Assembly: GCA_022565795.1 (NCBI GenBank)
Contig: JAIUMA010000030.1
Location: 1 to 37,434 of the forward strand
DNA: 37,434 bases
Direction: 5' to 3'
Source of the DNA: Balneolia bacterium
GTDB lineage: Bacteria; Bacteroidota; Rhodothermia; Balneolales; Cyclonatronaceae
Position numbers and translations under genes: made by a program. Below the pieces are notes generated by a model. That model was not told the DNA's origin and did not search any database. It was given only the letters and a program-made list of their open reading frames with translations. Positions 20,782-37,327 of the stretch are shown here, in pieces (position 1 is the first letter of the stretch; each line of letters begins with the position of its first letter).

Positions 20782-23697
20782 ATGCGCATCACAATACTCT
20801 TATTTGCTTTCCTTTGCGTTCTTGCCGGAGGATTGACTGATGGCTTTATAAATCCGGCTATGGCGCAGACGCAGGCGCCTGTCTACGAGAATGTGTATCG
20901 ATCGGCTCAGAAGCACTTCACCCTCACCACCCCGCGTTTTCGCATCATTTACCCTGAGGGTCAGCAGGAGGTCGCCCTGCGTACAGCCCGCGTTCTGGAA
21001 GATCAATACTCCATGATTCAGTCTCTTGTGGGGGGATCACTGCGCCATTTTCCGGTTGTGCTTAACGACCACAATGACCTTTCAAACGGCTACGTTACGC
21101 CCATTCATTTCCGAACCGAGATTGAGATTCCCGCAATCAAAGGCCGTTCACTGAATCCGCGAACTGGTGGCTGGATCGAAAACGTTGCGCCCCACGAGCT
21201 GGTTCACGCCCTTCATTTTTCCAATATTCCTTCGGGCTCTACTGTTTCACTGATCTATCCCTTTGCGCCGGACCTTACCCGTTCGCTTCACGGCATTGCA
21301 CCTTTTGGTATGATTGAAGGCATCGCCGTTTTCCATGAAACAAAAGTGGTTTATGGTCAGGGCGGTCGCGGTAACCTCTCCATCTTCCGGAATGCCACGC
21401 ACAGCAACCTCAGCAGCGACCGGCCTTGGTCGCTGGCTCAGCATCTGATGCCCGCCAGCTACAGCCTTCCGGGCAACCGACACTACGCCGGCGGCTATGA
21501 ATTCATTCGCTGGCTGCAGTATAACTACGGCATGGAGACCACGCGCAATACCATCGAAACCTTTGTGCAGCTTCCGCTTCTTGGGTATGGCCGCGCACTC
21601 AGACAGGCTACCGGAGAAAGCACCCGCACGCTCTACCGGCAGTATATGGCCGACATGCAGGAGCATCTCGCAGAGGAGCATCCTTCATCGCGCATTTCGC
21701 AAGATGAGACTGCTGGTCAGGGCGAAGCTATTCCCGCTCGTGCACCGGACGAAAACCAGAACCGGCCGCAATGGCTCGACAACGACCGCATCATTTTTGC
21801 GCAGCCCACCCAGTATAACAGCCGTCCCGGCTTCTATGTATATGACCTCAGCAGCGGACGCACCCGCCTGCTCTACGAATCCCGCATGGTTGGTGACTTC
21901 AACTATCACCTAAGTCCCGAGCGCGACCGCCTTGTTTACTCCAGATACAATCGCCACCCCTATCATGTTAACGCCTGGGTGATGGATGCTTTTGAGGTAA
22001 ACACCGAAACGCGGCGCGCACAGAGGCTGAGCCGGAATGCCAGAATCCATGCTCCGGTTTATTCCGGTTTGCAGGATGATGCGCAAGATTCGGGCATCAT
22101 CGGGCTTAAAACCGTAAACGAAACCTCCCAGCCTGCCCGTGTAAAGGATGACGGCTCGGCTGAAGTGATCTATTCGATCTATCCGGACACCTTTATTCAG
22201 CTTGAGCCATCACCGGCTGAGGCCGGAACCTATGCCGTAATTGCGAACCGGAACGGCCTGCAGGCGCTTTGGATCGTGCGCGACTCGGATTTCTCAACCG
22301 TATCCGGCTCCAATCCGGACGTGGCGTTCAGAAACGGCATCATCCATGACTTTTCCTGGTCACCTGACGGAGAAAACATACTTCTGAGCGGAACCATGGA
22401 GAACGTTGCGCAGGTGTACGAATACAATCCGCGCGCGCTGAACCTCACCCGACTTACCCAAAGCCGTTTCGGGGCTGTGCAGCCATCATACAGTCCGGAC
22501 CAGTCCCGCATTGCCTACATCGAACAGATCGACAACAGTAACCGCGTTATGGTGATGGAGGTCAAAAACGCGTTCGGCCGCGAGTATCAGCCGGTCGAGT
22601 TCCAGCCCGATGTGAGCTCTTCGCTTGAGGCATCGCGCCTGTCCGACCACCGCAATTCCGATGAATCCAGCTGGGAGTTTGCTGAATACCGTAGCGGCAT
22701 TTCGTGGCTTCGTCCAAGGGTGTTTCTACCCGCTATTTATGAAGGAAGCAGTCCCGTGCTCGACACCCGTTTCGGGCTCATCGCTCAGGGCGGCGACGTG
22801 CTGAGGCGCCACGCGTGGCTCGCTGAAGTGACCTACGCCAACGAACATCTTTGGACTGAGCTCTTCTATCGAAATTCCACTTTCTGGCCCGGTTATCAAA
22901 TTGAGGCGTTTTATTCACCGCTCCCCACCTTTCGCGGGCTGTACAAAGAACGTGGCGGAACCTTCTCGCTTCCTTTCACCTGGCAGATGAATCACCGCTC
23001 GAGATCTACCTACTGGCAATTCAGGCCGGGCATTCGCGGGAGGCAGTTCAGACCCTATAAGCTACTGCCCATACCTGAGAACGAACAGATTAACACCGAA
23101 TGGTTTACCGATATTTCGGTACGAGGTTTTCTCGGCTATTTCTTCCGGCTGCAGCAAAACATACGTGATATTCAGCCAAACACCGGAACTGTTCTTTTTA
23201 CACAGGCCGAGCAGTTTATCATCAGCGACCGGGAGGCAAGGGTAGCCGGAATTCGATTTGGTATACAACAATACCTCAGCCCGGCGCCCCGATGGAATCA
23301 CGGTCTGTTTCTGGGCGCGGAGGCCATCACCCAAACGCCTGTGAGACTATTCAATACGTCAAACCTGGTTTATCGCGGCTTCGGTGAGAATGTGCTTGCC
23401 GGGCTCCAGAATGCCGGAAGCCTGCGCGCCCGCTACGTGCTGCCGATTCGCTATGTGGATAATGGCTTCATCAGCGTCCCGTTCTTCATGGACCGCATCT
23501 ACCTCGCGCTTGAAGCCAACTATGTGGCTGATCTCAACGAGCTCAGCCAGGAAAACTTCAGCACCATCGGCCGGGCGGTTTACGGAATCGAGCTTCGAAC
23601 CAACATTCGTATCTACAACCTCCCCCTCGACCTCGGCATCGGTTTCGGCTTCGAACCGACCCGCAGGGAGCTCCATCTGTTTAGCGGGACGAGATAA
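20782..23697 (+). CDS. Secreted HExxH metalloprotease-like domain fused to TolB propeller and C-terminal barrel
   Basis: This 971-aa protein has a signal peptide (residues 1-29, ending AMAQ). The N-terminal domain is a gluzincin-type (MA clan) fold. HELVH at 138-142 gives two zinc ligands and the catalytic glutamate, and E179 in GMIEGIAVFHE is the likely third ligand. Downstream, AGGYEFIRWLQYNYG is typical of secreted MA-clan proteases. Residues about 330-600 are TolB/PD40 propeller blades, with repeats like FSWSPDGENILLSG and PSYSPDQSRIAYIE. Residues about 640-971 are rich in alternating aromatic strands and resemble an outer-membrane barrel or beta-sandwich. I infer a surface-exposed protease or a protein-binding factor anchored in the outer membrane. 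The substrate is unknown. The gene is 111 bp upstream of the giant operon. Confidence 0.85.
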   Translation: MRITILLFAFLCVLAGGLTDGFINPAMAQTQAPVYENVYRSAQKHFTLTTPRFRIIYPEGQQEVALRTARVLEDQYSMIQSLVGGSLRHFPVVLNDHNDLSNGYVTPIHFRTEIEIPAIKGRSLNPRTGGWIENVAPHELVHALHFSNIPSGSTVSLIYPFAPDLTRSLHGIAPFGMIEGIAVFHETKVVYGQGGRGNLSIFRNATHSNLSSDRPWSLAQHLMPASYSLPGNRHYAGGYEFIRWLQYNYGMETTRNTIETFVQLPLLGYGRALRQATGESTRTLYRQYMADMQEHLAEEHPSSRISQDETAGQGEAIPARAPDENQNRPQWLDNDRIIFAQPTQYNSRPGFYVYDLSSGRTRLLYESRMVGDFNYHLSPERDRLVYSRYNRHPYHVNAWVMDAFEVNTETRRAQRLSRNARIHAPVYSGLQDDAQDSGIIGLKTVNETSQPARVKDDGSAEVIYSIYPDTFIQLEPSPAEAGTYAVIANRNGLQALWIVRDSDFSTVSGSNPDVAFRNGIIHDFSWSPDGENILLSGTMENVAQVYEYNPRALNLTRLTQSRFGAVQPSYSPDQSRIAYIEQIDNSNRVMVMEVKNAFGREYQPVEFQPDVSSSLEASRLSDHRNSDESSWEFAEYRSGISWLRPRVFLPAIYEGSSPVLDTRFGLIAQGGDVLRRHAWLAEVTYANEHLWTELFYRNSTFWPGYQIEAFYSPLPTFRGLYKERGGTFSLPFTWQMNHRSRSTYWQFRPGIRGRQFRPYKLLPIPENEQINTEWFTDISVRGFLGYFFRLQQNIRDIQPNTGTVLFTQAEQFIISDREARVAGIRFGIQQYLSPAPRWNHGLFLGAEAITQTPVRLFNTSNLVYRGFGENVLAGLQNAGSLRARYVLPIRYVDNGFISVPFFMDRIYLALEANYVADLNELSQENFSTIGRAVYGIELRTNIRIYNLPLDLGIGFGFEPTRRELHLFSGTR

Positions 23698-23808: not shown

Positions 23809-26800
23809 GTGGCCCCTCTCTCGAATAAACGGTTCCGAAAATGGATTGAACGCCAAAAGTCCGGCTACGGGCGTGACGCGTATGCCAAAACATATTCCCG
23901 CCGTGACGTCTTAAAAGCAACAGCCATAGCTGCCGTATCTCTGCCGTTGGCCGCAGGTGCACTTTATGCAGTAGAAGGTCGCGTACGGATAAGGATTAAG
24001 TCAGGCGTGCTTTATGTTTCCTTAAATGGCACCGATGTATGGAAAACTGACCCTAAAGACTTTGCAGGAAATCCGTCATGCTATTTACGCGAAGCAGAGG
24101 AAAGAACGGAGTTCGGGCTTACTAAAGCGCGCTTCCCTGGAACTTCTATCCCCGCTTCTTTTTCATGCTCTTTAAACCACAGGGAACCCGGCTGTCCGGC
24201 AATAATCAGTCATGATGCAGGGATTACAGCCGATGTAAAACTGAGCCACTGGCTTCGTGGCAAATACCTGCCTGAAGCCGAACTCAAACGGTCCCTCCGC
24301 TTTCGGAAGAGTACCCATGGATTCTCAATGCAGATTCCGGCAGGCAGCCGTATGCGTTTAAAGGATCCGTGCTCTTTGGTTTTTAACCCCGTTCACAAAG
24401 GAACCTGCAGCAGCGGAACCGACCTCATACGCTTCGGCCAGGCGAAGCTAACCGTGTCGGCACCCTCAGTTGAATCGCTATTGCCGGAAAATGGCAAACG
24501 CAGTTCCATTCGGCTAAGCAGCGGACAAGTACGGCTGGGCGCTCACGAATTTTCGGACGCACCGGCCGTTTATAAAATTCCGGAACAGTACGAACTAATT
24601 GAAGCTACCGCGGAACTACGTGAACTCCGGGCTGACAAAATCAGGTCCGCTTTCGGGGTTCACCTTGCGCCCACCGGTGATCATAAGCTAGCTGTGTATG
24701 CTTCTTCGGGCAGCAGTTCTGCATTACTTACAGCCGGAATTCGGAATCTTTTTGTGGGGAGAACGCATGGCAACAGATCCGCTGAAAGCAGGATCATCGC
24801 GACTGCATCTGAGGAATCTCCAAAGCTGTATCATCGGAAAATTAGTGCTGATTTAAAGGCCGGCACTACCGAATCCATCATCGAGATGGATGTAGCCGGA
24901 AGTACCCTCAACTCTTTCCGTTTCAAGACCGGACTGGACGCCGTATTTCTCAGCGAAAACGAGTCTCAGGACAAAGCCATCCCCTTCCATGGCTCTGATG
25001 ACAGCACCTACCCGGTGTCGCTGTCGAACAAGCCCCTGTCCGAAAATCAATCTACGGGAATATTGCTGCCGGGAAAAAGAACGGGTGATGAGCCTCAGAT
25101 ACAAAATCCGGTAATTAAGCTGATACGTCCGGACGACCTTGTTGTTCTAAAGTTCGAATTCGCGGGCATCACGCTTAAGTTCGTCGAGGGTGAGCCAAAG
25201 CTGGTCAGTAATTCCAGCGGCGGGTACATGCGGGTTATACACCAGCCGCAGTCCATAGCCGAACAGGCTTTTTTTCAGGCAAATGATGAAATACCTGTGC
25301 CTGAGGATGACCCTGATAAAAACAGCGGCATTGAATACCTAACCCGGCCTCCGGTTAAGTCCTTCCTTTCCGGAAAAAGTCGTGTCGTATTCGAGTTCCC
25401 ACCCGATTCGCGCGTTGCCTACACGCTATCTGCCCTTCTCGACGCCATGACCAAGTGGAATATGGCACTAACGCCCAACGCCGCAACCGTTCCTGTGAGA
25501 CCCATGATCCGGGCCACTATTTTGCCCGGAGCATTAGGTGTTACGAGAGTCAGCTTTAATCTGCCGGACGCCTCACCAGTTGTGCCGGAAAATCAGGCTC
25601 CCCTTCTTCCGTCTACTCAGCCGGTTTCTCTGTCAAACGTCCCTGTGATGGGCGTATTAAGGCCAACCGATGAGGACCCGCCCGCACCGGCCGTTGGTGT
25701 TTCCGATGTACAGAATTTAATTCGGCTGAGGCGCAATCACACGTTACTGCAGACTTCGGTCATAACGAGACCCGACATGCTGTTGTCACCCGGCCAGCTG
25801 GCTCCTCCTCCCGCTGTAGTGCCCGGGAGGTTGTTGATTCCGCCATCACTTCCGGGTGAAAACCAAACCGCAGTGGAGAGCCCTTTCCGGATGCTGGTTT
25901 CACCACACGCGCAATCGGCCTGGATCCATCTCACCAGACCGGGCTATTCTTCGTTCACCGACCGAACAGAGTTATGGCACTCAAGGCTTGCGGTCAGACT
26001 GGCAACCGGAAAAATCGACGAGCGTATCTCCTATCTAAAGGCCATTCGCGCTATATGGTACACGGATTATCTCACCGAGGGTGACAAAGCCCTCTACAGA
26101 TCTGTTCCGGACCACAGTAATGAGCCATTCAGAACCAGCCTTAACAGCAGCGACAGACATCAGATTGTTCACCTGAGCTCAAATCCCATGATGTCGCGCC
26201 GCGATGATAATACCCGGCGAATTGAGCCAAAAGCGGTGAGAGCCAATCAGTTTATACTAAGCTCTTTAGGTTCCTTCATGAATCTTAAAGGAGAATGGGA
26301 TGAATGGACAAGGCCATCTGCACTAAATCTTGAATCCTGGGAACACGTTTCCACTATGGCAAGAGACCATTTTGTGAAGGTGGTTTACGCCGGCGTGCTT
26401 TTTCCTTTCGGGCATGCCGCCTCTATGGTAAAAATAACGGAGCGGGAATTTCAGGATGATGAAAAGTCAGAAACCCGCATTGCCTATCTGCGTCAGCGCA
26501 TGTTCATCATCATTCGTGAACCTGTGGTAATGCACGGTCTGACGGAAACTCCCGACGGCAGAGCCATGCCGTTTAAGTCCGTCGAAATTCTTAATGATGT
26601 AACGCCCCTGCTTGATAATCCCACAGCAAGTGATGTGGCAGATGCTGGTCAGGACTGCTTCTGGCCACGAGTTGGCGGACAGGACTTCAGGTTTAACCTG
26701 ATTCTGGAGGATGCAGAAGGCAATCGGCAGGAGCTCACCATGCCGCTGGCGTTTGTAAACGAATCAATAGTTGAGAACCAGAATCATGTTTTAAACCAGC

Positions 26801-28962
26801 TAATCGAGCTGTTTCAGGAAGATACATCACCTGTGTACAGACTCAGACAAAGCCAAAACCTGAAAAGGCAGCAGGTTGCGCTCACCGCTTCAAAAGGAAA
26901 CTCCAATAACCTCTTTGAACTAGGTGAAACCCGATTCAGCGTAAATCTTACAAGTCAGTTTCCGTTCTGGAATCCGATAATCACAGAATTTACCGTACAT
27001 TCACCAGCTCTGGAAAATATGGTGGGTGAAGGACGGGCCAGGGTTCGTTATTTCGAGGAATATTTACAGCATGAATATGACAGCGCCAGAAACAAGGCTG
27101 AAATCTTTCTTGCCCTGATTGGTGGCCCTGAGATACCCGAAGTAAATTTTGATGGCCTTGGCGAGCGGATTGGCGGCCTGATTCAGCCAAACTTCAACAT
27201 TAGCGGGTTTTCCCGTCTCTCCGGAGCCGTAGGCGGGGCTCTTGATGAGCTGGCCAATGGCAATTTCGATCCGGCTTCGTTCTTCAGTGAAAACATGCCG
27301 GACGGAAGCATTCTCAGGAGCTTTCCTGCTCAGCTTTTTGGAGTCCTAAATCTCTGGGATATTCTGGACACGTTTGGTATTGATGAAGAGCGACTTATTC
27401 CCCGCTTTATTCTGGAAGTCACTGACAAAATCGAGCGCTTTCTGGAAGATCTTGAGCGACTCAGGAGACTTATTGCATTTCTGGAAGAACAGGAACCGGT
27501 CAGGATCCCGCCGCTTCAGTCCGTTAACTGGAATCAGGTTAAAAGCCTGATTAGCGCACTCGTGCAGGATATTCTTGAGCTGGCTCAGGCCTATCTCGAG
27601 ACCCGTGCGCAGGACCTCGTTTCAGATCTACAGAGTGAAGCGCAGGAGCGGATTTCAGAACTTCAGACCGATGTCGAGAATCGTCTGAACGAGCTGTTTA
27701 ATATTATTTCAGATGTTCGTGAACAGATTGAAGCCGCCATTGAAACCGCAGAAAACGTAAGACGTGAGCTGCTGGAAGCTATCGAACGGGTACAAAACTA
27801 CCTGGATCGTGGCATTGATTTGGCAGAAGCAGTACAGCGATTTATGAACGACGTCCGGCGCTTTGCCGAAGCCGTACAGCTTGCCCGTGAAATGCGCGTT
27901 CGATTTGAGTGGCGACCCAAGCTCAAATCGTGGCCAACACAGAACCCGATTTTTGTAGATAGATTTAACTTTCAGGGATCTGATACGATTCCGGCCACGA
28001 TGGTAATCAGCACCGAGCTGAACGGAAGCACAACTAGCGGAGGGGTGCAGGCAGGTTTCCATGCCTATTCTGCTCTGGAACACTTCACTATTAATCTGGC
28101 CGGAAGCGTTTCATTCGTAAAGCTTTATTTCAAAAAGATAGCTTTTGATGCCAGTTCGCAATCGAAGCCCAATGTGGTTGTGGACTTTGCCGGAATCGAG
28201 TTCGCCGGCCCGCTGCGCTTCATTGAAGTCCTCAGGAGGCTGATACCTCTGCGGGGCTTCGGTGACCTTGCCAATGTGGACGTTCTTGCGGAAGAAATCC
28301 GAAGCGGCTTCTCCCTCGAGCTTCCCGACGTCGCTATGGGGATGGTCAGTCTCCAGAATATCGCGCTCAACTCAGACATCCGGGTTCCGGTAATCGGCCG
28401 GCCGGCCAGCCTAGGCTTCAACTTCTGTACCCGTGAGCGCCCCTGCTCGGTTACGGTGCTAGCTGTTGGTGGTGGTGCTTACTTTGGCATATCCGTGAAC
28501 ATGCGCGGCCTTCAGGCGGTCGAGGCAGCCATTGAGTTCGGTGGATCAATCGCTTTTAACGTGGTGGTTGCAAGCGGAAGCGTAACTATTATGGCGGGCA
28601 TCTACTTCAGGCTCGAGTTCCAGGATGATACCAACCTGGTTACGCTAACCGGATACCTGCGCTTCGCCGGTAGCGTGAAAGTAATCGGGTTGATTACCGT
28701 GTGCATAGAAATGCGAATGGACCTAAGCTATGTCTCATCCGGCAGCGGAGCCGGGAAAATGGTGGGACGAGCCAGCATATCTGTACGTGTAAAGATTGCC
28801 TTTTTCAGAAAGACGGTGAGCATCAGCGTTGAAAGGCGCTTTGCCGGAAGTAATAACGACCCCTCTTTCGAAGATCAGATGGGTGCTAAATACCTCAATC
28901 CGGTCACCAGAAATGAAACAAAAGCATGGGATGAATACTGCGATGCTTTTGCAGCCATATAA
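23809..28962 (+). CDS. Giant Tat-exported protein with central coiled coil (1,717 aa), unknown function
   Basis: The start is GTG; no ATG lies in frame between the upstream stop and the Tat motif. After a 29-residue basic leader comes a twin-arginine signal SRRDVLK (S30-K36), a hydrophobic core at 37-54, and a probable cleavage after ALYA (54). Residues about 60-700 are beta-rich with Pro-rich linkers. Residues about 720-900 hold the best-ordered region (ELWHSRLAVRLATGK, then DHFVKVVYAGVLFPFGHAAS). Residues about 1205-1360 form a long Glu/Arg-rich coiled coil. The last 350 residues alternate Gly and hydrophobic residues and look like a beta-solenoid or barrel-like sandwich. Tat export implies the protein is folded, or carries a cofactor or partner, before crossing the membrane. 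From memory only, similar very large pairs occur in other phyla; I cannot name a family. Confidence 0.85.
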   Translation: MAPLSNKRFRKWIERQKSGYGRDAYAKTYSRRDVLKATAIAAVSLPLAAGALYAVEGRVRIRIKSGVLYVSLNGTDVWKTDPKDFAGNPSCYLREAEERTEFGLTKARFPGTSIPASFSCSLNHREPGCPAIISHDAGITADVKLSHWLRGKYLPEAELKRSLRFRKSTHGFSMQIPAGSRMRLKDPCSLVFNPVHKGTCSSGTDLIRFGQAKLTVSAPSVESLLPENGKRSSIRLSSGQVRLGAHEFSDAPAVYKIPEQYELIEATAELRELRADKIRSAFGVHLAPTGDHKLAVYASSGSSSALLTAGIRNLFVGRTHGNRSAESRIIATASEESPKLYHRKISADLKAGTTESIIEMDVAGSTLNSFRFKTGLDAVFLSENESQDKAIPFHGSDDSTYPVSLSNKPLSENQSTGILLPGKRTGDEPQIQNPVIKLIRPDDLVVLKFEFAGITLKFVEGEPKLVSNSSGGYMRVIHQPQSIAEQAFFQANDEIPVPEDDPDKNSGIEYLTRPPVKSFLSGKSRVVFEFPPDSRVAYTLSALLDAMTKWNMALTPNAATVPVRPMIRATILPGALGVTRVSFNLPDASPVVPENQAPLLPSTQPVSLSNVPVMGVLRPTDEDPPAPAVGVSDVQNLIRLRRNHTLLQTSVITRPDMLLSPGQLAPPPAVVPGRLLIPPSLPGENQTAVESPFRMLVSPHAQSAWIHLTRPGYSSFTDRTELWHSRLAVRLATGKIDERISYLKAIRAIWYTDYLTEGDKALYRSVPDHSNEPFRTSLNSSDRHQIVHLSSNPMMSRRDDNTRRIEPKAVRANQFILSSLGSFMNLKGEWDEWTRPSALNLESWEHVSTMARDHFVKVVYAGVLFPFGHAASMVKITEREFQDDEKSETRIAYLRQRMFIIIREPVVMHGLTETPDGRAMPFKSVEILNDVTPLLDNPTASDVADAGQDCFWPRVGGQDFRFNLILEDAEGNRQELTMPLAFVNESIVENQNHVLNQLIELFQEDTSPVYRLRQSQNLKRQQVALTASKGNSNNLFELGETRFSVNLTSQFPFWNPIITEFTVHSPALENMVGEGRARVRYFEEYLQHEYDSARNKAEIFLALIGGPEIPEVNFDGLGERIGGLIQPNFNISGFSRLSGAVGGALDELANGNFDPASFFSENMPDGSILRSFPAQLFGVLNLWDILDTFGIDEERLIPRFILEVTDKIERFLEDLERLRRLIAFLEEQEPVRIPPLQSVNWNQVKSLISALVQDILELAQAYLETRAQDLVSDLQSEAQERISELQTDVENRLNELFNIISDVREQIEAAIETAENVRRELLEAIERVQNYLDRGIDLAEAVQRFMNDVRRFAEAVQLAREMRVRFEWRPKLKSWPTQNPIFVDRFNFQGSDTIPATMVISTELNGSTTSGGVQAGFHAYSALEHFTINLAGSVSFVKLYFKKIAFDASSQSKPNVVVDFAGIEFAGPLRFIEVLRRLIPLRGFGDLANVDVLAEEIRSGFSLELPDVAMGMVSLQNIALNSDIRVPVIGRPASLGFNFCTRERPCSVTVLAVGGGAYFGISVNMRGLQAVEAAIEFGGSIAFNVVVASGSVTIMAGIYFRLEFQDDTNLVTLTGYLRFAGSVKVIGLITVCIEMRMDLSYVSSGSGAGKMVGRASISVRVKIAFFRKTVSISVERRFAGSNNDPSFEDQMGAKYLNPVTRNETKAWDEYCDAFAAI

Positions 28963-28986
28963 ACGAATACTACAAGAAGAAACAGA

Positions 28987-31900
28987 ATGCCGGATCAGAT
29001 AATCACTCTTACTGTACTTCCCAAGCCTGAAGTCAGAACCCAGGTCGGACAATCGCTTCGCGTTTCTGTGCATTTCGGGATGAAGCTGTTCAGTCACAAC
29101 CGTCTTGGTCCGTATGATGGGTTTACCGGATCAACCAACTGGGCCCGGCGTGTGCGCGAAGCTTCAGTAACTTTTTTACTGAATGGAGCAGAAGTACAAG
29201 GCAATCTGGCTTCCGACACACAGCCTGATCCCGAGCTTTGGAACAGCATATTCAATGAGAACACGCCCGTAAACCCCTATGAGCGGGAGGACTACAGCAA
29301 TCGATTCATACGCACTTTCCCGGCCGTTGAGCTTTACGAATCGCTCCGTGAGACGTACCAGGCAGCCGCCATACACTCACCTGACCGTTTTATTGATACT
29401 TCGGGAATGGTGCCCGGACCTTCGAACGTACAGGCAACGCACTTTGTCCCCCCGGAACTACCTCCGGATCAGGAAGCTTTTTTGAGACTCTTACAGGAAG
29501 CAGGCCCCTTGGCTGATAAAGCCGTGATTGGTAAAGCCATGTCTGAACTTGATATCCGTAAGGATGGAGCATTCATTACCCCTTCTGAGATCCTTGATAT
29601 TGCTAACAGATACAATGTACCGGAAGAAACCGTAAAGTGGATGCAGCTTCTCCGCTTCTACAACCGGCCGCATGCTGCGGAGTCTATTGCCGGCCCGAAT
29701 TCTGTTGAAGTGGATTTCCACTATATGATGGGCGTGCTCGGTGACTATCCTGTTCTGATGCGTAAGCTTGGCATTGTCGCCGATTATGAAATAGAGCTAA
29801 ACGACTCCCTTCCCTCAACAGGAACTATTCAGGCGCTGAATATCGGCGGGATTCCGGGACGTACTGACAAGCCGGTTTCAACTTACCGTGTTCATTCGGA
29901 TTCGGGTATCATCACCCTTGACACGCGTAGCGAAAACACCGCAGAGCTTAGGGCAGGCTGTCTCGATATTGGCGGAGGAAAAAGTTATCAAATCCTCCAG
30001 GAAGACACCGACCGCATGCTGATGAAAGCCATGAACGTGGCTTCAAACACCACAATTAAGCTTGGTGCACTTGTAGCGCGCCGGGCCCGCAGAGGCGACT
30101 TTGAGCCTTCTGAGCCGGAATCACTGCCGGCACTGCAGACATCAGGCATCACTCTCTACAGAAAAAATCAGGACGCTTTTCTGCATCAGAGTTTTCAGAT
30201 GGCCAGAGCATTCTTCATCGGTACAGAAGCAAATGCGTTGCAGAGCGAAAAATTCTACTTTGAGGATTTGATGGATGGCTTTGCCGTTGACATTCAGGAT
30301 GTGAACAGCGGTCGCTGGTTCTCGCTCTGTAAAAGGACGGGCAGGTACAAAATTGGTGAACATGGTGAAGAATTTATTGCCGAAGATGAAGGCTCGGTGG
30401 CCGAGTCATCGGTTAGTGAAAATGATGAGGGCCTTGAAAACGACTTTTATATCCATGAGGCACTTTTCGCATGGGATGGCTGGAGCCTGGTAGCAGAAAA
30501 GCCGGGTAACACCATTGTTCCCAGGGAGGTTCATGGCGACATCGAATCGAACTCATCATTAGAGTTACAGGCTGATGATAACTACGAGCGCCTGGGACGA
30601 ATCCAGCACCGGCCACCCGAGGAGTTTCCGCTTGAGACCTGGTTTAAGCCCCAGAAAGGCTCACTACCTCCGCTCAGGTTTGGCAGAAAATACCGCCTGC
30701 GCGTTCGGGCCGTGGACATTGCCGGAAACAGACTAAGCATGGATGATGCGGATCGTGCGGGCAGTGCGGTCGTTTCTGATGAAATTCTCTACCGAAGATT
30801 TGAGCCCGTTTCTCCTCCGGTCGTTTTACCGCGTTTTCGCATGGGTGAAGGCGAATCTGTGGAGACGGTAGTCATTCGGAGCACTTATGATCTTTCCACA
30901 ACAGAGTATCTCGAGTCCGAAGCTGTTAAAAAGGCCACGGCCGGACTGCCGCATAAGTGGCATCACTGGAATGAGCGCCATATTGCGCCTCCGAAAGCTG
31001 CACAGGAAATGGCCGAAAGACACAGCCTGTTCGACACAGCCATCACCGGGAATAATGACCGCCTGAAGCAGTTTAATATTGCAGTTAAGGAAAAAGGGAC
31101 GTTTAAAGATAAGCTCATTATTGATGTTAACACCGGAGAGCCATCCATTCCGGTTGAAGGTCTCGGATTGGTAAAACCCGGAGAGAGCGGGGTGCAGCCC
31201 TTCGATGGCCTTGGCCCCGGAGAGCCGCTTGAAGAAGATCACTATCTGGTCTACGACACAAAGAAGCTTCAGCTGCCCTATCTGCCCGATCCGTTCAGCG
31301 GTGAACTGGCTCTGCTCGGCCTTCCAGGTGCTGGCGATTCAGTTACCAAAGTTTCATTCGGACTTTCTTTCCCGGACGCCAAACCCTTCAGAATTGTGAT
31401 TGTTGAAGGCAGCGGTTCACCTGAATTTCGTAACAACGATCCCGAATTTGGGCCGCGGATACTCCGGGTTCCGCTTCCCAAAGCAGCTATTGCCGAAGTT
31501 GATTTAAGCGCGGCGTTGAGTAATGCTCAGATTGATCATATGGGCGTCTGGGGCTGGATTGATGGGGCGGGACTTAACAGCAGTACAAAAAACCGACTTC
31601 GCCAACTCATTCGTGAAGGCCGGCACTGGATGATCTCGCCTTCGAGAAAGATCAAGCTGGTTCATGCGGTGCAGCAGCCGCTTGAAGAGCCACGCCTGAG
31701 ATCGGCTTCTGCGCAGAAAACAGGCATAGGCGAAACTGCGGCCATGCTTTCAGGCCGCTTTCATTTCGACTGCAGAAGCACCGGCCGGATATCGTTTTCA
31801 GCCTCCTGGGAGGAGCCTCACGACAATCCAACCCTGGAGCAGCCGGAAGATGGACGCGAAGGGCGCGAGATTATTGCCAAATCAGGACGCGTGCTCGAAA

Positions 31901-33165
31901 TGGATATTGAGCCCTTCTATAAAGACATCACCGATCTGAGGTTCCCGGTCCCCGCCGAAGAGCACCCGGACTACCCCCACAAAAAGCAGCTTGATACAAC
32001 GGAGGTCAACCATTTCTTCAGACACGACTTTGGTGATACCAAGCACCGGATTGTGCTATACAGCCTTACCGCGGTAAGCCGTTTTGAGCATTACTTTACA
32101 GATCAGCTCAGGCAAAACGAGAATGCATTTACCCGTACGGGCGCGTCTTACTCCGTTTCAATACTGTCGTCCGCCAGACCGGATGCTCCGTTGGTCAAAT
32201 ATCTGATCCCGACTTTTGGCTGGGAGCAAGAAACCTTTCCGGAAGGAAATATCAGCCGCAGAAAAGGCGGGGGCTTACGCGTTTGGCTCGATCGCCCCTG
32301 GTACAGCAGCGGTGAGGGCGAACTGCTGGGCGTGGTGATTCCCGGCAACCACGATGCGGCCATGCTTCCCGAAAACGCTCATCTGATTTCGCACTGCGGT
32401 CAGGATCCTATCCGGAAGTCAGCCCAGCCTGCATACAGACTGCGGCCCGAACATTTTCCAGACCGCGTTCGGGGCAACAATACCATCACCCTTGAAGAAA
32501 CCGGACTAACCGCAGCTGTTGCCGGTCATCAGGTTCACTTCGATGAGGAGCGTAAACTGTGGTACTCCGACATCCAGATTGATACCGGTGATGCTTACTT
32601 CCCGATGGTCCGTTTGGCGCTGGTGCGCTTTCAGCCATCTTCCATGGAAGATGCGCACGTTTCTGCGGTTGTGCTGGCTGACTTTATCCAGCCTGCAGCT
32701 GATCGTACCGCCGCTGTCAGTCTTATCGGAAATCAGATTCGTGTGATGGTATCAGGAGTGTACAGCATGAACCTGTTCGCGCTTGAGGCTGGTGGCCATG
32801 TGGTAGACAAATACGATAGCCCGGTTGACCGAAGCCATCGTTTTGTGGCCACGCTAGAGCAGAGACGAAGCGGAAGCGACGAAAACTGGCAGACTGTGCA
32901 TGATGACTTCATAGATCTACCGCTCGAAGCCGTTCAGCAGTACGGACCAGACATTCTCTGGATGAGTACCTTCGATGCCGGGCAAGAGGCCGTGGTCGAA
33001 TCAGGCTATTTCGGAAGAGAGGAGCTCGAGTTCCGTGTCTCTGTGAAGGAGTACGAAATGCATTATCGTGACCCCGATGAACAGGCCCGTATACCAACCC
33101 GCCGGATTGACCCGCTCGCTGAACGGGTAGTTTACGCCGACACCATCAACGTACCCAAAAACTGA
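28987..33165 (+). CDS. Giant partner protein without export signal (1,392 aa), unknown function
   Basis: This gene begins 24 bp after the Tat-substrate gene. The N-terminus (MPDQIITLTVLPKPEVRTQV) has no signal peptide or transmembrane segment, and none occurs later. Visible regions: helical residues about 155-225 (LADKAVIGKAMSELDIRK and following); FHYMMGVLGDYPVLMRKLGI at about 244-263; a fibronectin-III-like strand set at about 560-588 (YRLRVRAVDIAGNRL); and a mixed region ending with GLRVWLDRPWYSSGEGELLG (about 1,096-1,115). No catalytic motif or RHS, Tc-toxin or adhesin repeat is recognisable. Because it lies between a Tat-exported and an outer-membrane protein, it may leave the cell bound to the Tat substrate, or it may be a cytoplasmic assembly factor. 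I do not know its function. Confidence 0.85.
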   Translation: MPDQIITLTVLPKPEVRTQVGQSLRVSVHFGMKLFSHNRLGPYDGFTGSTNWARRVREASVTFLLNGAEVQGNLASDTQPDPELWNSIFNENTPVNPYEREDYSNRFIRTFPAVELYESLRETYQAAAIHSPDRFIDTSGMVPGPSNVQATHFVPPELPPDQEAFLRLLQEAGPLADKAVIGKAMSELDIRKDGAFITPSEILDIANRYNVPEETVKWMQLLRFYNRPHAAESIAGPNSVEVDFHYMMGVLGDYPVLMRKLGIVADYEIELNDSLPSTGTIQALNIGGIPGRTDKPVSTYRVHSDSGIITLDTRSENTAELRAGCLDIGGGKSYQILQEDTDRMLMKAMNVASNTTIKLGALVARRARRGDFEPSEPESLPALQTSGITLYRKNQDAFLHQSFQMARAFFIGTEANALQSEKFYFEDLMDGFAVDIQDVNSGRWFSLCKRTGRYKIGEHGEEFIAEDEGSVAESSVSENDEGLENDFYIHEALFAWDGWSLVAEKPGNTIVPREVHGDIESNSSLELQADDNYERLGRIQHRPPEEFPLETWFKPQKGSLPPLRFGRKYRLRVRAVDIAGNRLSMDDADRAGSAVVSDEILYRRFEPVSPPVVLPRFRMGEGESVETVVIRSTYDLSTTEYLESEAVKKATAGLPHKWHHWNERHIAPPKAAQEMAERHSLFDTAITGNNDRLKQFNIAVKEKGTFKDKLIIDVNTGEPSIPVEGLGLVKPGESGVQPFDGLGPGEPLEEDHYLVYDTKKLQLPYLPDPFSGELALLGLPGAGDSVTKVSFGLSFPDAKPFRIVIVEGSGSPEFRNNDPEFGPRILRVPLPKAAIAEVDLSAALSNAQIDHMGVWGWIDGAGLNSSTKNRLRQLIREGRHWMISPSRKIKLVHAVQQPLEEPRLRSASAQKTGIGETAAMLSGRFHFDCRSTGRISFSASWEEPHDNPTLEQPEDGREGREIIAKSGRVLEMDIEPFYKDITDLRFPVPAEEHPDYPHKKQLDTTEVNHFFRHDFGDTKHRIVLYSLTAVSRFEHYFTDQLRQNENAFTRTGASYSVSILSSARPDAPLVKYLIPTFGWEQETFPEGNISRRKGGGLRVWLDRPWYSSGEGELLGVVIPGNHDAAMLPENAHLISHCGQDPIRKSAQPAYRLRPEHFPDRVRGNNTITLEETGLTAAVAGHQVHFDEERKLWYSDIQIDTGDAYFPMVRLALVRFQPSSMEDAHVSAVVLADFIQPAADRTAAVSLIGNQIRVMVSGVYSMNLFALEAGGHVVDKYDSPVDRSHRFVATLEQRRSGSDENWQTVHDDFIDLPLEAVQQYGPDILWMSTFDAGQEAVVESGYFGREELEFRVSVKEYEMHYRDPDEQARIPTRRIDPLAERVVYADTINVPKN

Positions 33166-33173
33166 GGTCATTC

Positions 33174-35030
33174 ATGAAGCGATATGTTTTTCTTTGCGGG
33201 GTGATGGTTTTCAAAGCTTTGATGCTGCTCGCTGCAGAAAGCAGGGCTCAGATTATACAGCCGATTAGCGGCTACAGCGTAATCAGTGGAGAAACGATGA
33301 ACCGGTCGTTTCCTAACTCTAATATCGACGTGAGCTATATCGACTGGGAGTTTCAGGGAAGCGCCTCGTTTTTGGGCGTGCCTGTAACCGCGAGCGGGCT
33401 TCTCTCTTCATTCGATGGTCCGGCATATAACTACAACAGGCTCCACATTGCGGCCGGAATGAGCCGCGAGCAGGCTAACTTGCTGCTGAGACAGCGGATA
33501 ATTCATCAGATTGATGCTTTGTACAAAGAGCGCTGGTCGCCCGGCGTTTCTGCACTTCGCGCCTTTGAAATCGACCTCGAGCTAGATAAGCTCAGCCGCC
33601 TTCAGGCTACCGGTGTATACCGGTCGGAAGACTTCGCATTATATGAGGATCTCGGCCTGCTTTCTGAAAACGAAAACCGCGCTATTCGGTTTCCGCTGAT
33701 TGCTGGAATCGGCTCAAAATCGCCATCATACAGCACCCGTAATACTCTGAGCGGTGTTCTTCTTACAGGCTTTAACGCTGAGCTTGACACTCCATTTATC
33801 TTTGCAAAAGCTAATGTCGGAACTATTCGCAATCCAGCATTTGGCAATCCCTTTAGTTTTCTTGGTCAGGATTTCGGATATAACGACCGTAATCTTTTAG
33901 CTGTTCGTGGCGGATTCGGCAGACCTGAAACCAGCCACATCCATGCTGTCTATATTACCTCAGAAGCACTTAGTGAACCGTCTGCAGATGCAAACATCCA
34001 GCAGGGGTCGTTATTTCAGCCACATCTGGCGCCAAACTCCACAAACTTCGTTGTGGGAATCAGCGCCAGCGCCGGCAGCTACGACGGATTAACACTTGGG
34101 CTCTCTGCCAACGCTTCGGGCATTAGTTACTCAGGGGCGGGTCAGATTGGTGATACTCCACCTCGGGATTCCGAATCATTCGGTGATATTGCCCTCGAAG
34201 GAAATGCCAAACTGCGAGTGAACAATCGCAATACCATTGTCCATGCCTCATTCGACTATACCGGACCCGAGTTCGCATCACTTAGCGTGGGCTGGCTTCG
34301 CAGAGATTTGCTTCGCCATCGTGCCGGTTTTGAACATCGCTTTTTATCCCGACAGCTGATGATTGGAGCTGAATATTCAGCTGAACAAAATAATCTGAGC
34401 GGTAACTTATCTTCCGAATTCGAAACCTTAGTTCTAAATTTCAGAGCAGGGCTGTTTCTACACAACCTCCCATATCTGATTGTAAGCTATTCGCCTGCTG
34501 AGCAGACATTCAGGAGTTCTTCACAGGAACGTATCGATAACAGGACCAATACTGATTTTCTTACGTTCATTGCCGGACACCAATTTCGTATTGGAGAGTT
34601 AACCTCTGTTACATCCGGCCACTTTTCCTTGTACGAGACGCGCTACTCTCCCCGGGAACTAAGTTTAAATGGAAGTTCTATAGGAATTACACAGCAGTTT
34701 CAGTACAGCATTTTTGGTCTGCGCGGGCACTATGAATCGTTTAGCTCCTCTTTTAATGGCTCTGAGAACCATCAACAGCTCATCAGCGGCGGAATCTCTA
34801 TGATGGTCTATTCAGGGATAGATATTGAGGCCGGAGGAAGCAGCACGCTTAACGATAACAGCATTACTACTACCGGAATTTATCTATCTGCGATTGCTGA
34901 TTTTCAGCAGTTCGGACAGCTTGAGGTAAAATATACCTCCGACAGATTTCGGGAGGCATTTTTACAGCTGCCGGAAAACCAATATGACATAAGCCGGCTT
35001 CGGATCATATTTCGACATTCATGGAATTAA
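33174..35030 (+). CDS. Outer-membrane beta-barrel protein of the giant operon (618 aa)
   Basis: This gene starts 8 bp after the upstream stop, with a GAGG Shine-Dalgarno overlapping the junction. The signal peptide is residues 1-25 (cleavage after ESRA). Residues about 95-170 are helical (SREQANLLLRQRIIHQIDAL and a long amphipathic stretch), which could form a periplasmic plug or docking domain. Residues about 180-618 are alternating beta-strands with polar loops, typical of a large outer-membrane barrel, ending RLRIIFRHSWN. No TonB box, POTRA or SusC/FadL motif is visible. In this operon it is the natural candidate for the outer-membrane exit or anchoring component for the two giant proteins. 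Confidence 0.8.
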   Translation: MKRYVFLCGVMVFKALMLLAAESRAQIIQPISGYSVISGETMNRSFPNSNIDVSYIDWEFQGSASFLGVPVTASGLLSSFDGPAYNYNRLHIAAGMSREQANLLLRQRIIHQIDALYKERWSPGVSALRAFEIDLELDKLSRLQATGVYRSEDFALYEDLGLLSENENRAIRFPLIAGIGSKSPSYSTRNTLSGVLLTGFNAELDTPFIFAKANVGTIRNPAFGNPFSFLGQDFGYNDRNLLAVRGGFGRPETSHIHAVYITSEALSEPSADANIQQGSLFQPHLAPNSTNFVVGISASAGSYDGLTLGLSANASGISYSGAGQIGDTPPRDSESFGDIALEGNAKLRVNNRNTIVHASFDYTGPEFASLSVGWLRRDLLRHRAGFEHRFLSRQLMIGAEYSAEQNNLSGNLSSEFETLVLNFRAGLFLHNLPYLIVSYSPAEQTFRSSSQERIDNRTNTDFLTFIAGHQFRIGELTSVTSGHFSLYETRYSPRELSLNGSSIGITQQFQYSIFGLRGHYESFSSSFNGSENHQQLISGGISMMVYSGIDIEAGGSSTLNDNSITTTGIYLSAIADFQQFGQLEVKYTSDRFREAFLQLPENQYDISRLRIIFRHSWN

Positions 35031-35032
35031 AC

Positions 35033-35641
35033 ATGAAAAAATCACTTTTTATATTTTTCTGCCTGTGCTTCAGTTTCGGGATGAGTGTATCCGAAAGCAC
35101 TGCGCAAACTGAGTCGCCCGAGTCACAGCTTGGCGGTCCCATGCTTTTATTTCCTGAAGGCACCTACGGCAGCACGCTCTTGCTTCCGCCTTTTACCTGG
35201 GTCGATGCCTCACCATTTATTGAGTCAAGAGGTCCATTCGCATACAGAGTGACGGTCAAACAGCTATACCCATCTCAGTCTCCTGAAACTGCCGTCCTCT
35301 ACAATCCGGTATGGCACAGATCTGAACTGATTTTCCGGACATCCTATATCTACCCATTGCAGGCCAGACCACTCACAAATCATTCCGGAAACTTTGTCTG
35401 GTTTGTCGAAATAGTTGATATCTCGGGCCAGATCGTTTACCGGGTGAGTGAACCCGTTGTCTTCAGCTTTTCCAGACCGTTTATCCGTCCTGTAGCAGCA
35501 CTTCCGGAGGATGCTCCTGTGGATATACTCTCCTGCATGCTGAATCCTGACTGTGAGCTTCATGCTTCAAAACGCGCTGTATCTGAAGAAGAGGACAGTG
35601 TTATTCGCAGAGGTGATGAGCTACCAACCCCCAACAACTAA
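35033..35641 (+). CDS. Small secreted beta-rich protein of the giant operon
   Basis: The ATG at 35033 is preferred over one 12 bp upstream because it begins a canonical signal peptide (MKKSLFIFFCLCFSFGMS, cleavage likely after STA) and sits 2 bp after the upstream stop, as expected for translational coupling. The mature chain of about 175 residues is Ig/FnIII-like: LLPPFTWVDASPFIESRG, a YRVTVKQLYP strand, and NFVWFVEIVDISGQIVYRVS. The FTW...Y-V pattern is common in envelope proteins that pair with barrels. The C-terminus has two close cysteines (SCMLNPDCELH) and a charged tail. No lipobox is present. It is probably a periplasmic or surface accessory factor for the barrel gene just upstream. 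Confidence 0.78.
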   Translation: MKKSLFIFFCLCFSFGMSVSESTAQTESPESQLGGPMLLFPEGTYGSTLLLPPFTWVDASPFIESRGPFAYRVTVKQLYPSQSPETAVLYNPVWHRSELIFRTSYIYPLQARPLTNHSGNFVWFVEIVDISGQIVYRVSEPVVFSFSRPFIRPVAALPEDAPVDILSCMLNPDCELHASKRAVSEEEDSVIRRGDELPTPNN

Positions 35642-35728: not shown

Positions 35729-37327
35729 ATGCATAATTTTTCGATTACAATAGAGGGAGGATCGGTTTCTGAAGCGCTCCAGGAGCAGCTGGAAAAGCTT
35801 GGTTCGCTGGTCCGAGTTCGGACGCTCGAGGCCTCCGGGCAACCCGCATCCGACACCGTGCTGGAATTCGATTCCAATGCCTTTCGCAAAGACCTGCATT
35901 CGCTGCGGGAAGCAATAGCTCTAATCGCTTCGGAGTACGATGCGCACTTCAAAGCCGGCGAGAAAACCATATCGGCCAGCGCAATAACCGATATCTTCGA
36001 CCGCGTACTCAGGCAGGAGCAGCAAATAATTGAAGAGCGTCAGCGTAACGATCTTCGCCCCGACGGATGGGGTTATTCCGCGCTTGATGCCATCACACGC
36101 TACCTTCCCGAACACCGCGAAGACCTGTTTTATGATGCGTTTTGGTTTCAGTTCGGCACCTTTGTTTCCGATGGGGTCTGGAGCGTAGACAAGCATCAGA
36201 TTCTGGCTATTCTGAAACAGCAGGCCGAAGACAAACTGCTTCATCTCTGCCCCTCTTTCGATTTCTCCGTAACAGAAGGCATCATCTCTCGACTGCCTGA
36301 CAGCATCGATACGAACGACAACCCCAATTGGTCGGTCTGGTACGCCAAAGTTGTTGAAGGGTCGAGGGTGATGCGCAAACCGCGCGGCATTATTCACAAA
36401 CTGACGCGCATAAGCGGCCGCAGCGCCGATGGATCCGTTTCATCTTCAGCCAGTGAGGCCAATTCGTCTGCGGATGAATCAACAAACAAGCGCAAACGCA
36501 ACATCCCGAAGGTCAGCTTTGATGAGATAGGCGGAATCGACGGGGTTATAAGCCAGGTCCGTGAAGTGATTGAGCTGCCGCTGAAAAATCCGGACTTATT
36601 TCGCCATTTGGGAATAAAGCCGCACAAAGGCATGATGCTTTATGGTGAGCCTGGATGCGGCAAGACCATGGTCGCCAAGGCCATTGCGAACGAAGTTGAA
36701 GCCCACTTCATCTCTGTGAAAGGTCCGGAGCTTATTAACAAATATCAGGGAGCGAGTGAAGAAAACCTCCGCAAGCTGTTTGATGAAGCCCGCGATATGC
36801 AGCCGGCCATCATCTTTTTTGATGAAATTGATGCCGTGGGCCAGCGCCGCTCCGATGCCGAAACCCTGCGCACAGATGCACGCTTCGTCAATCAGCTGCT
36901 CTCTGTTATGGACGGCGTTGAAGATTACGGCCGGATTTGTGTGATTGGCGCCACAAATAGAATTGAGCTTATCGATCCGGCACTCTTGCGTCCGGGAAGA
37001 TTCGATTATCAGCTGGAGGTTAAAAAGCCCGATGCGGAAGGATGCCGCCGCATCTTTGAAATCGTTACAAAAGAAATGCCGCTTGATGAAGAAATCGACC
37101 GGGCTAATTTTGGCCGCGATCTTGTGGGGCGTACCGGAGCCGAGATTTCATTCATCGCCAGGGAGGCCGCTTACAACACCCTTCGCAGAACGCTTAACAC
37201 GGACAAAGAGTTTGATAAAGACAAGATAACATCATTCGATTACAGTAGTATGGAAATTTCCCTCGATGATCTCAATGCCGCTAAATCCAAGCTGACAGGA
37301 GGCCGGACAGCCAAGAAAAAAGTTTAG
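35729..37327 (+). CDS. Proteasome/Cdc48-like AAA ATPase with unique N-terminal domain
   Basis: This 532-aa protein has one classical AAA module (residues about 260-500). It contains Walker A GEPGCGKT (306-313), Walker B IIFFDEID (D365, E366), pore loop NKYQG with aromatic Y339, the sensor segment [17 protein letters not shown], and arginine-finger RPGRF. It most resembles the Rpt/PAN/Cdc48-type remodellers that thread substrates through a hexamer pore. Residues 1-230 form a helical N-domain I cannot match, followed by a Ser-rich linker (about 231-255). There is no transmembrane anchor and no protease domain, so it should unfold or remodel proteins rather than degrade them by itself. It lies 87 bp after the giant operon with no terminator between. 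Membership of that operon is plausible but unproven. Confidence 0.9.

What the first reader, a model, noticed from the sequence alone, without database searches (positions are those of the whole stretch)
23809..35641. Envelope-spanning operon of two giant proteins, an outer-membrane barrel and a small secreted partner
Four same-strand genes are packed with gaps of 24, 8 and 2 bp: a 1,717-aa Tat substrate with a long coiled coil, a 1,392-aa protein lacking any export signal, a 618-aa barrel with a helical N-domain, and a 202-aa secreted Ig-like protein. Together they cover cytoplasm, inner membrane export, periplasm and outer membrane. None carries a motif of a named secretion, adhesion or toxin system. 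Known families explain the targeting signals; that the four proteins form one complex is inference.
Basis: partly seen in the sequence, partly recalled or inferred. Interest (0 to 1): 0.88.

Follow-up and report, generated by a model that had tools for sequence, protein, structure and literature searches.

The report
Giant paired proteins with export cassette
Two very large, never-named bacterial proteins are always encoded side by side across many phyla, and here they travel with two outer-membrane partners, which points to an undescribed machine that exports or displays an unusually large protein complex.

Summary
The four genes are real and packed as described. A (1,717 aa, Tat signal) and B (1,392 aa, no signal) belong to two families with no Pfam, NCBIfam, PADLOC, PHROG or PDB match. 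They form a near-obligate pair: in 88 loci from more than ten phyla, Gram-positives included, B lies directly downstream of A. About 34 of 79 complete A proteins carry a Tat signal; no B has a signal. TatA genes directly flank the pair in four loci.

C (barrel) and D (small secreted protein) are a second module. Among sampled Bacteroidota-phylum loci (GTDB sense), a C relative has a D-domain gene beside or fused to it in 33 of 35, usually a giant protein. D's domain is a distant relative of TANFOR, the N-terminal domain of Bacteroidetes polymorphic toxins. All four genes recur together in about 16 genomes in several arrangements, and only with Tat-bearing A.

Best explanation: A and B form one complex; Tat exports it on A's signal with B hitchhiking, and C/D handle the outer membrane. 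Linkage is shown. Complex formation, co-export and C/D's role are inferred; the biochemical activity is unknown. At 347 kDa, A+B would far exceed the ~150 kDa quoted for Tat cargo.

The parts
23809..28962 (+). Protein A, 1,717 aa, 190 kDa; Tat-type signal (RR at residues 30-31), Tat-variant N-domain, core from about residue 434, coiled coil about 1240-1400, C-terminal long-strand beta domain
23895..23970 (+). Tat signal region of A (RRDVLK + hydrophobic stretch)
   Evidence: sequence; (14.7 bits against a cut-off of 16.7); same motif in relatives
28987..33165 (+). Protein B, 1,392 aa, 156 kDa; no export signal; predicted chain of Ig/FN3-like beta domains
33174..35030 (+). Protein C, 618 aa, signal peptide, short helical segment, beta-rich outer-membrane-type barrel ending in W-N
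35021..35641 (+). Protein D, 202-206 aa secreted FN3/Ig-like protein; relatives have an extra N-terminal domain distantly related to TANFOR, which the window copy lacks

Best explanation
A and B are the two subunits of one giant complex. In this lineage the complex folds in the cytoplasm and is exported by the Tat pathway on the signal of A, with signal-less B carried along (hitchhiking). The Sec-exported barrel C and secreted FN3-type protein D then receive, pass or anchor it at the outer membrane. Shown: gene linkage, conservation, the distribution of signals, tatA genes next to the pair, and C/D only with Tat-bearing A. Inferred: physical complex, co-export of B, and the acceptor role of C/D. 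Not known: what the complex does outside the cell.
For: In 88 loci A lies directly upstream of B on the same strand, with core gaps mostly of 0-50 bp. A and B distance matrices correlate at r = 0.86, against at most 0.16 in 999 permutations; this reflects co-inheritance and is not proof of binding. No B has a signal; about 34 of 79 complete A have an RR signal. TatA genes directly flank the pair in L026, L035, L049 and L054, and these were the only TatA-like ORFs found in about 110 loci. TatC is present in the window genome. All four genes recur in about 16 genomes in four arrangements: A-B-C-D, A-B-D-C, D-A-B-C and D-C divergent from A-B. All 13 loci with C or D and a complete A have the Tat signal; of 76 loci without C/D, about 50 lack it (Fisher p = 6e-6, not corrected for relatedness). 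Hitchhiking through Tat is established for other complexes (PMC4273604, abstract; Rodrigue 1999 as cited in PMC6708511).
Against: A+B is 347 kDa, above the 150 kDa quoted for Tat cargo (PMC6708511). About 45 of 79 complete A proteins have no signal at all, so the pair also works in, or leaves from, the cytoplasm. The Tat model is just below cut-off for the window protein. No A:B or C:D complex prediction could be run. Co-evolution of neighbouring genes can reflect linkage alone. SprA (T9SS) is present in the genome, so C may not be the outer-membrane route.
Confidence: 0.55

Rival explanations
1. C and D are a TANFOR-type delivery pair and A/B is a giant toxin or effector cargo that replaced the usual TANFOR giant protein.
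For: D relatives match a TANFOR+FN3 profile (99.7%, E 4e-25); C relatives lie next to giant D-domain proteins in most Bacteroidota loci; TANFOR proteins are polymorphic toxins (PMC7073777).
Against: A and B have no toxin domain and their C-terminal parts are among the best conserved, the opposite of a polymorphic toxin; no conserved immunity-like gene follows; the pair occurs without C/D in most phyla.
Confidence: 0.15
2. A/B is an extracellular structural or adhesive assembly (surface layer, appendage or matrix), with B as an Ig-like rod and A as base.
For: B model (pLDDT 88) is a multi-domain beta protein whose best PDB hits are mastigonemes, alpha-2-macroglobulin and Ig/FN3 arrays; size; lack of conserved neighbours.
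Against: TM-scores normalised to the query are about 0.1, so no real fold match; pairs without any signal exist; no anchor motifs seen.
Confidence: 0.15
3. A/B is a cytoplasmic or periplasmic binding machine for hydrophobic ligands; the long-strand C-terminal beta domain of A is the ligand-binding part.
For: Six consecutive antiparallel strands of 14-17 residues in the A model; weak fold hits to LptD, microsomal triglyceride transfer protein, ApoB and P47.
Against: All PDB hits listed have TM at or below 0.26 and rmsd above 17 A; outer-membrane barrels hit equally well, so this is generic beta meander.
Confidence: 0.1
4. A/B works in the cytoplasm; the RR motif is incidental and C/D are merely neighbours.
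For: More than half of the complete A proteins lack a signal; A-B stands alone in most phyla.
Against: TatA genes beside the pair in four loci; C/D only with RR-bearing A, in four different arrangements.
Confidence: 0.05

Closest known systems
Tat hitchhiker complexes (E. coli hydrogenase-2, PaoABC)
   Same: One subunit with an RR signal, partner(s) without, encoded together
   Different: No cofactor or redox domain found; about 347 kDa against a quoted limit of 150 kDa (PMC6708511); many homologous pairs have no signal; tatA beside the pair in some loci
TANFOR-domain proteins of Bacteroidetes (TIGR02542; PMC7073777)
   Same: D relatives share the end of the TANFOR domain and the following FN3-type domain; C relatives sit next to TANFOR-like giant proteins
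   Different: Below the TIGR02542 cut-off; the window D lacks the N-terminal half; A/B are not TANFOR proteins and have no variable toxin tip; the paper reports no barrel partner
Type IX secretion system
   Same: SprA is present in the genome; TANFOR genes were proposed as T9SS substrates
   Different: None of the four proteins has a T9SS C-terminal sorting domain in NCBIfam
Two-partner secretion
   Same: Giant exported protein next to an outer-membrane barrel
   Different: No POTRA or TPS domain in Pfam/NCBIfam; A appears to enter through Tat, not Sec

Membership tests
Tat substrate (protein A) | N-terminal S/T-R-R-x-[FLVM]-L motif plus hydrophobic stretch | tested here: met
   SRRDVLK + TAIAAVSLPLAAGAL; 14.7 bits against a cut-off of 16.7; motif conserved in relatives
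Tat substrate (protein A) | Host has TatC | tested here: met
   TatC E 9e-58 in G000
Tat substrate (protein A) | Tat-dependent export | not testable with these tools
   needs experiment
Tat hitchhiker complex (A+B) | Signal on one subunit only, partners co-encoded | tested here: met
   B without signal in all loci examined; 88 adjacent pairs
Tat hitchhiker complex (A+B) | Partners assemble before export | not testable with these tools
   no complex prediction or assay available
TANFOR (TIGR02542), protein D | Score above curated cut-off of 67 bits | tested here: not met
   D relatives at best 13.4 bits; no hit for the window D
TANFOR (TIGR02542), protein D | Homology of domain by profile comparison | tested here: met
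   99.7%, E 4e-25 over the end of TANFOR plus FN3, for D relatives; TANFOR rows used were themselves sub-cut-off
Polymorphic toxin (A/B) | Variable C-terminal toxin domain with immunity gene | tested here: not met
   C-terminal parts among the most conserved; no toxin domain in Pfam; no conserved downstream gene
T9SS substrate | Por_Secre_tail/CTD | tested here: not met
   NCBIfam scan of all four, none
Two-partner secretion | POTRA barrel plus TPS domain | tested here: not met
   No Pfam or NCBIfam match in A or C
Anti-phage defence system | PADLOC model match | tested here: not met
   Only coiled-coil cross-hits in A; none in B, C, D
Phage/virion protein | PHROG or phage-genome match | tested here: not met
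   One weak coiled-coil hit in A, none in B; B absent from 50,697 phage records

The most novel reading that the evidence does not exclude
A widespread, undescribed two-giant-protein complex that is exported whole by Tat (about 350 kDa here, roughly 500 kDa in rhizobia and Ruegeria), in some hosts with its own TatA, and in Bacteroidota and relatives received at the outer membrane by a dedicated barrel and TANFOR-like protein. It would be the largest Tat cargo known, and C would be a so far unrecognised outer-membrane partner of TANFOR-type giant proteins.
Probability: 0.35. Interest if true: 0.9.

Novelty: categorically new. Interest (0 to 1): 0.78.

Why it matters
A near-obligate pair of proteins of about 1,000-3,300 aa found in more than ten phyla has no name, model or structure; a conserved unit of this size with no known function is rare. 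If the pair is exported whole, it raises the known size of Tat cargo more than twofold and offers a natural test of whether TatA paralogs scale the translocation route to cargo size. The C-D link also suggests a dedicated barrel for TANFOR-type giant proteins, whose route across the outer membrane is unproven.

Tried and rejected
A first genome-contig scan with window B alone found nothing; a profile of 13 B proteins found 326 loci. PDB sequence searches with A and B profiles gave only chance hits. Fold searches of A (PDB, BFVD) and B (PDB) gave no whole-fold match; listed hits have low TM and mostly large rmsd. Pfam on distant and enlarged homologs gave nothing useful but a sub-cut-off Tat signal. 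A and B are not detectably related to each other. No conserved gene beyond A-B outside the loci with C/D. The upstream 971-aa gene and downstream AAA gene are not conserved with the cassette. Promoter and terminator scans were at chance level. An apparent A-B fusion in L083 is a long read-through frame, not a gene fusion.

Full report
Four same-strand genes lie at 23809-28962 (A), 28987-33165 (B), 33174-35030 (C) and 35021 or 35033-35641 (D), with gaps of 24, 8 and 2 bp if D starts at 35033. Frames this long do not arise by chance. Pfam, NCBIfam, PADLOC and PHROGs give no family for any of the four, apart from coiled-coil cross-hits and a Tat signal just below cut-off in A. The window is the whole contig C30 of the genome G000, a Balneolota/Rhodothermota-type bacterium judging by its nearest relatives.

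The whole cassette recurs. Searching 147 relatives found B in five other genomes, none in the same genus. In each of them A, B, C and D are present in the same order with different flanking genes, A or D being cut by the contig end in some. Identity to the window is about 35% for A, 44% for B, 26% for C and 30% for D. The upstream 971-aa gene and the downstream AAA ATPase do not recur, so the unit is the four genes.

A-B is a much wider, near-obligate pair. tblastn on plasmids found both proteins adjacent in Streptomyces, Cupriavidus metallidurans CH34, Diaphorobacter and Rhizobium, and profiles recovered them in Sinorhizobium, Agrobacterium vitis and Ruegeria. A profile scan of 84,980 species genomes found 326 stretches encoding B relatives; the best 80 come from Balneolota, Chlorobiota, Armatimonadota, Zipacnadia, Myxococcota, Proteobacteria, Aminicenantes, Chloroflexi, Actinomycetota, Paenibacillus, Neobacillus and others. 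In 88 loci A lies directly upstream of B on the same strand, and no other gene is conserved beside them across phyla. A and B distances correlate at r = 0.86, which shows co-inheritance, as expected for linked genes.

Export signals. Of 79 complete A proteins about 34 carry an RR signal with a hydrophobic stretch (33 by a strict filter plus L031, which the filter missed); the rest mostly start close to the core domain. No B shows a signal. TatA-like genes touch the pair in four loci (S. meliloti L026, Ensifer L035, L049, Zipacnadia L054) and were seen nowhere else in about 110 loci of roughly 20 kb. The two rhizobial cases have tatA after B and the other two have it before A, so at least two independent associations are likely. 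The window genome has TatC. A is 190 kDa and A+B 347 kDa, against 150 kDa given as the upper size of Tat cargo in a review (PMC6708511). Hitchhiking of signal-less subunits is established for Tat (PMC4273604).

C and D are a second module. A C profile matches 97 of 296 genomes of the wider phylum. In 15 strong and 20 weaker loci inspected, 33 have a D-domain gene next to C or fused to it (in a few with one gene between), usually a giant secreted protein (for L166 the C match lies beside the D gene by the coordinates). D relatives resemble TANFOR: below the curated cut-off, but 99.7% probability in profile-profile comparison with TANFOR-type N-termini over the end of TANFOR plus its FN3-like domain. 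Those TANFOR rows were themselves sub-cut-off hits. TANFOR proteins are polymorphic toxins of Bacteroidetes, proposed to leave by T9SS (PMC7073777); that paper does not mention a barrel. The window's D has lost the N-terminal half and keeps the FN3-like part.

The two modules meet in about 16 genomes, in four arrangements: A-B-C-D, A-B-D-C, D-A-B-C, and D-C divergent from A-B (one genome counted by joining evidence from two contigs that share a split D gene). One Armatimonadota locus has D-A-B without a visible C. Every C/D-linked locus with a complete A has the Tat signal (13 of 13), while most loci without C/D lack it; three genomes of the same phylum sample (G232, G403, G414) have A-B without signal and without C/D. 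Re-linking after rearrangement is the strongest evidence that C/D serve exported A-B.

Structure. AlphaFold2 models of compact Nonomuraea homologs reached mean pLDDT 82.7 (A) and 88.4 (B). These are homologs, not the window proteins, which exceed the length limit. B is a long chain of beta domains. A ends in six antiparallel strands of 14-17 residues. Foldseek found no convincing match for either (TM at or below about 0.3). C was not folded. The activity of the complex is therefore unknown.

How it most likely works: A and B assemble in the cytoplasm, A's RR signal takes them through Tat, and the Sec-exported C and D receive or anchor them at the outer membrane. The first step rests on signals and tatA linkage, co-export of B on the lack of any signal in B plus near-obligate pairing, and the last step only on co-occurrence. 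In Gram-positives and in many Proteobacteria the pair must act elsewhere or leave by another route; this is unexplained.

Against known kinds: the cassette fails T9SS, two-partner secretion, polymorphic toxin, defence and phage tests; it meets the sequence features of a Tat hitchhiker pair. I rate A-B as categorically new at the protein-family level, with the caveat that only open-access papers and the listed libraries were searched and that function is unknown.

Noticed in passing
L026 22886-23059; L035 15662-15799; L049 4868-5071; L054 1-204: TatA-like genes directly beside the A-B pair in four genomes, in rhizobial plasmids after B and in two other lineages before A.
   Followed up: yes
L163-L182, L155, L157-L162: Barrel C lies next to, or fused to, giant D-domain (TANFOR-like) proteins in most Bacteroidota-phylum genomes inspected, an association not reported in the TANFOR paper.
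   Followed up: partly
L157, L159, L160, L161, L174, L176, L178: A further gene of about 700-740 aa often sits between or beside the giant D-domain protein and the C barrel in Bacteroidota loci without A-B; not identified.
   Followed up: no
L026, L027, L029, L031: Rhizobiaceae and Ruegeria plasmids carry an enlarged form of the pair (A 3,000-3,300 aa, B up to about 1,900 aa), sometimes beside conjugation or defence genes.
   Followed up: partly
window 20782-23697 (+): 971-aa secreted protein with a TolB-like propeller stretch and an HELVH (HExxH-type) motif, likely a zinc peptidase; ends 111 bp before A but is not conserved with the cassette.
   Followed up: no
window 35729-37327 (+): AAA ATPase of the CDC48/proteasome-activating nucleotidase type directly downstream of D; not conserved with the cassette in relatives.
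   Followed up: partly
L155-L161: Domain D and barrel C are fused in one protein of 870-1,020 aa in several Bacteroidota genomes that have no A-B at that locus.
   Followed up: partly
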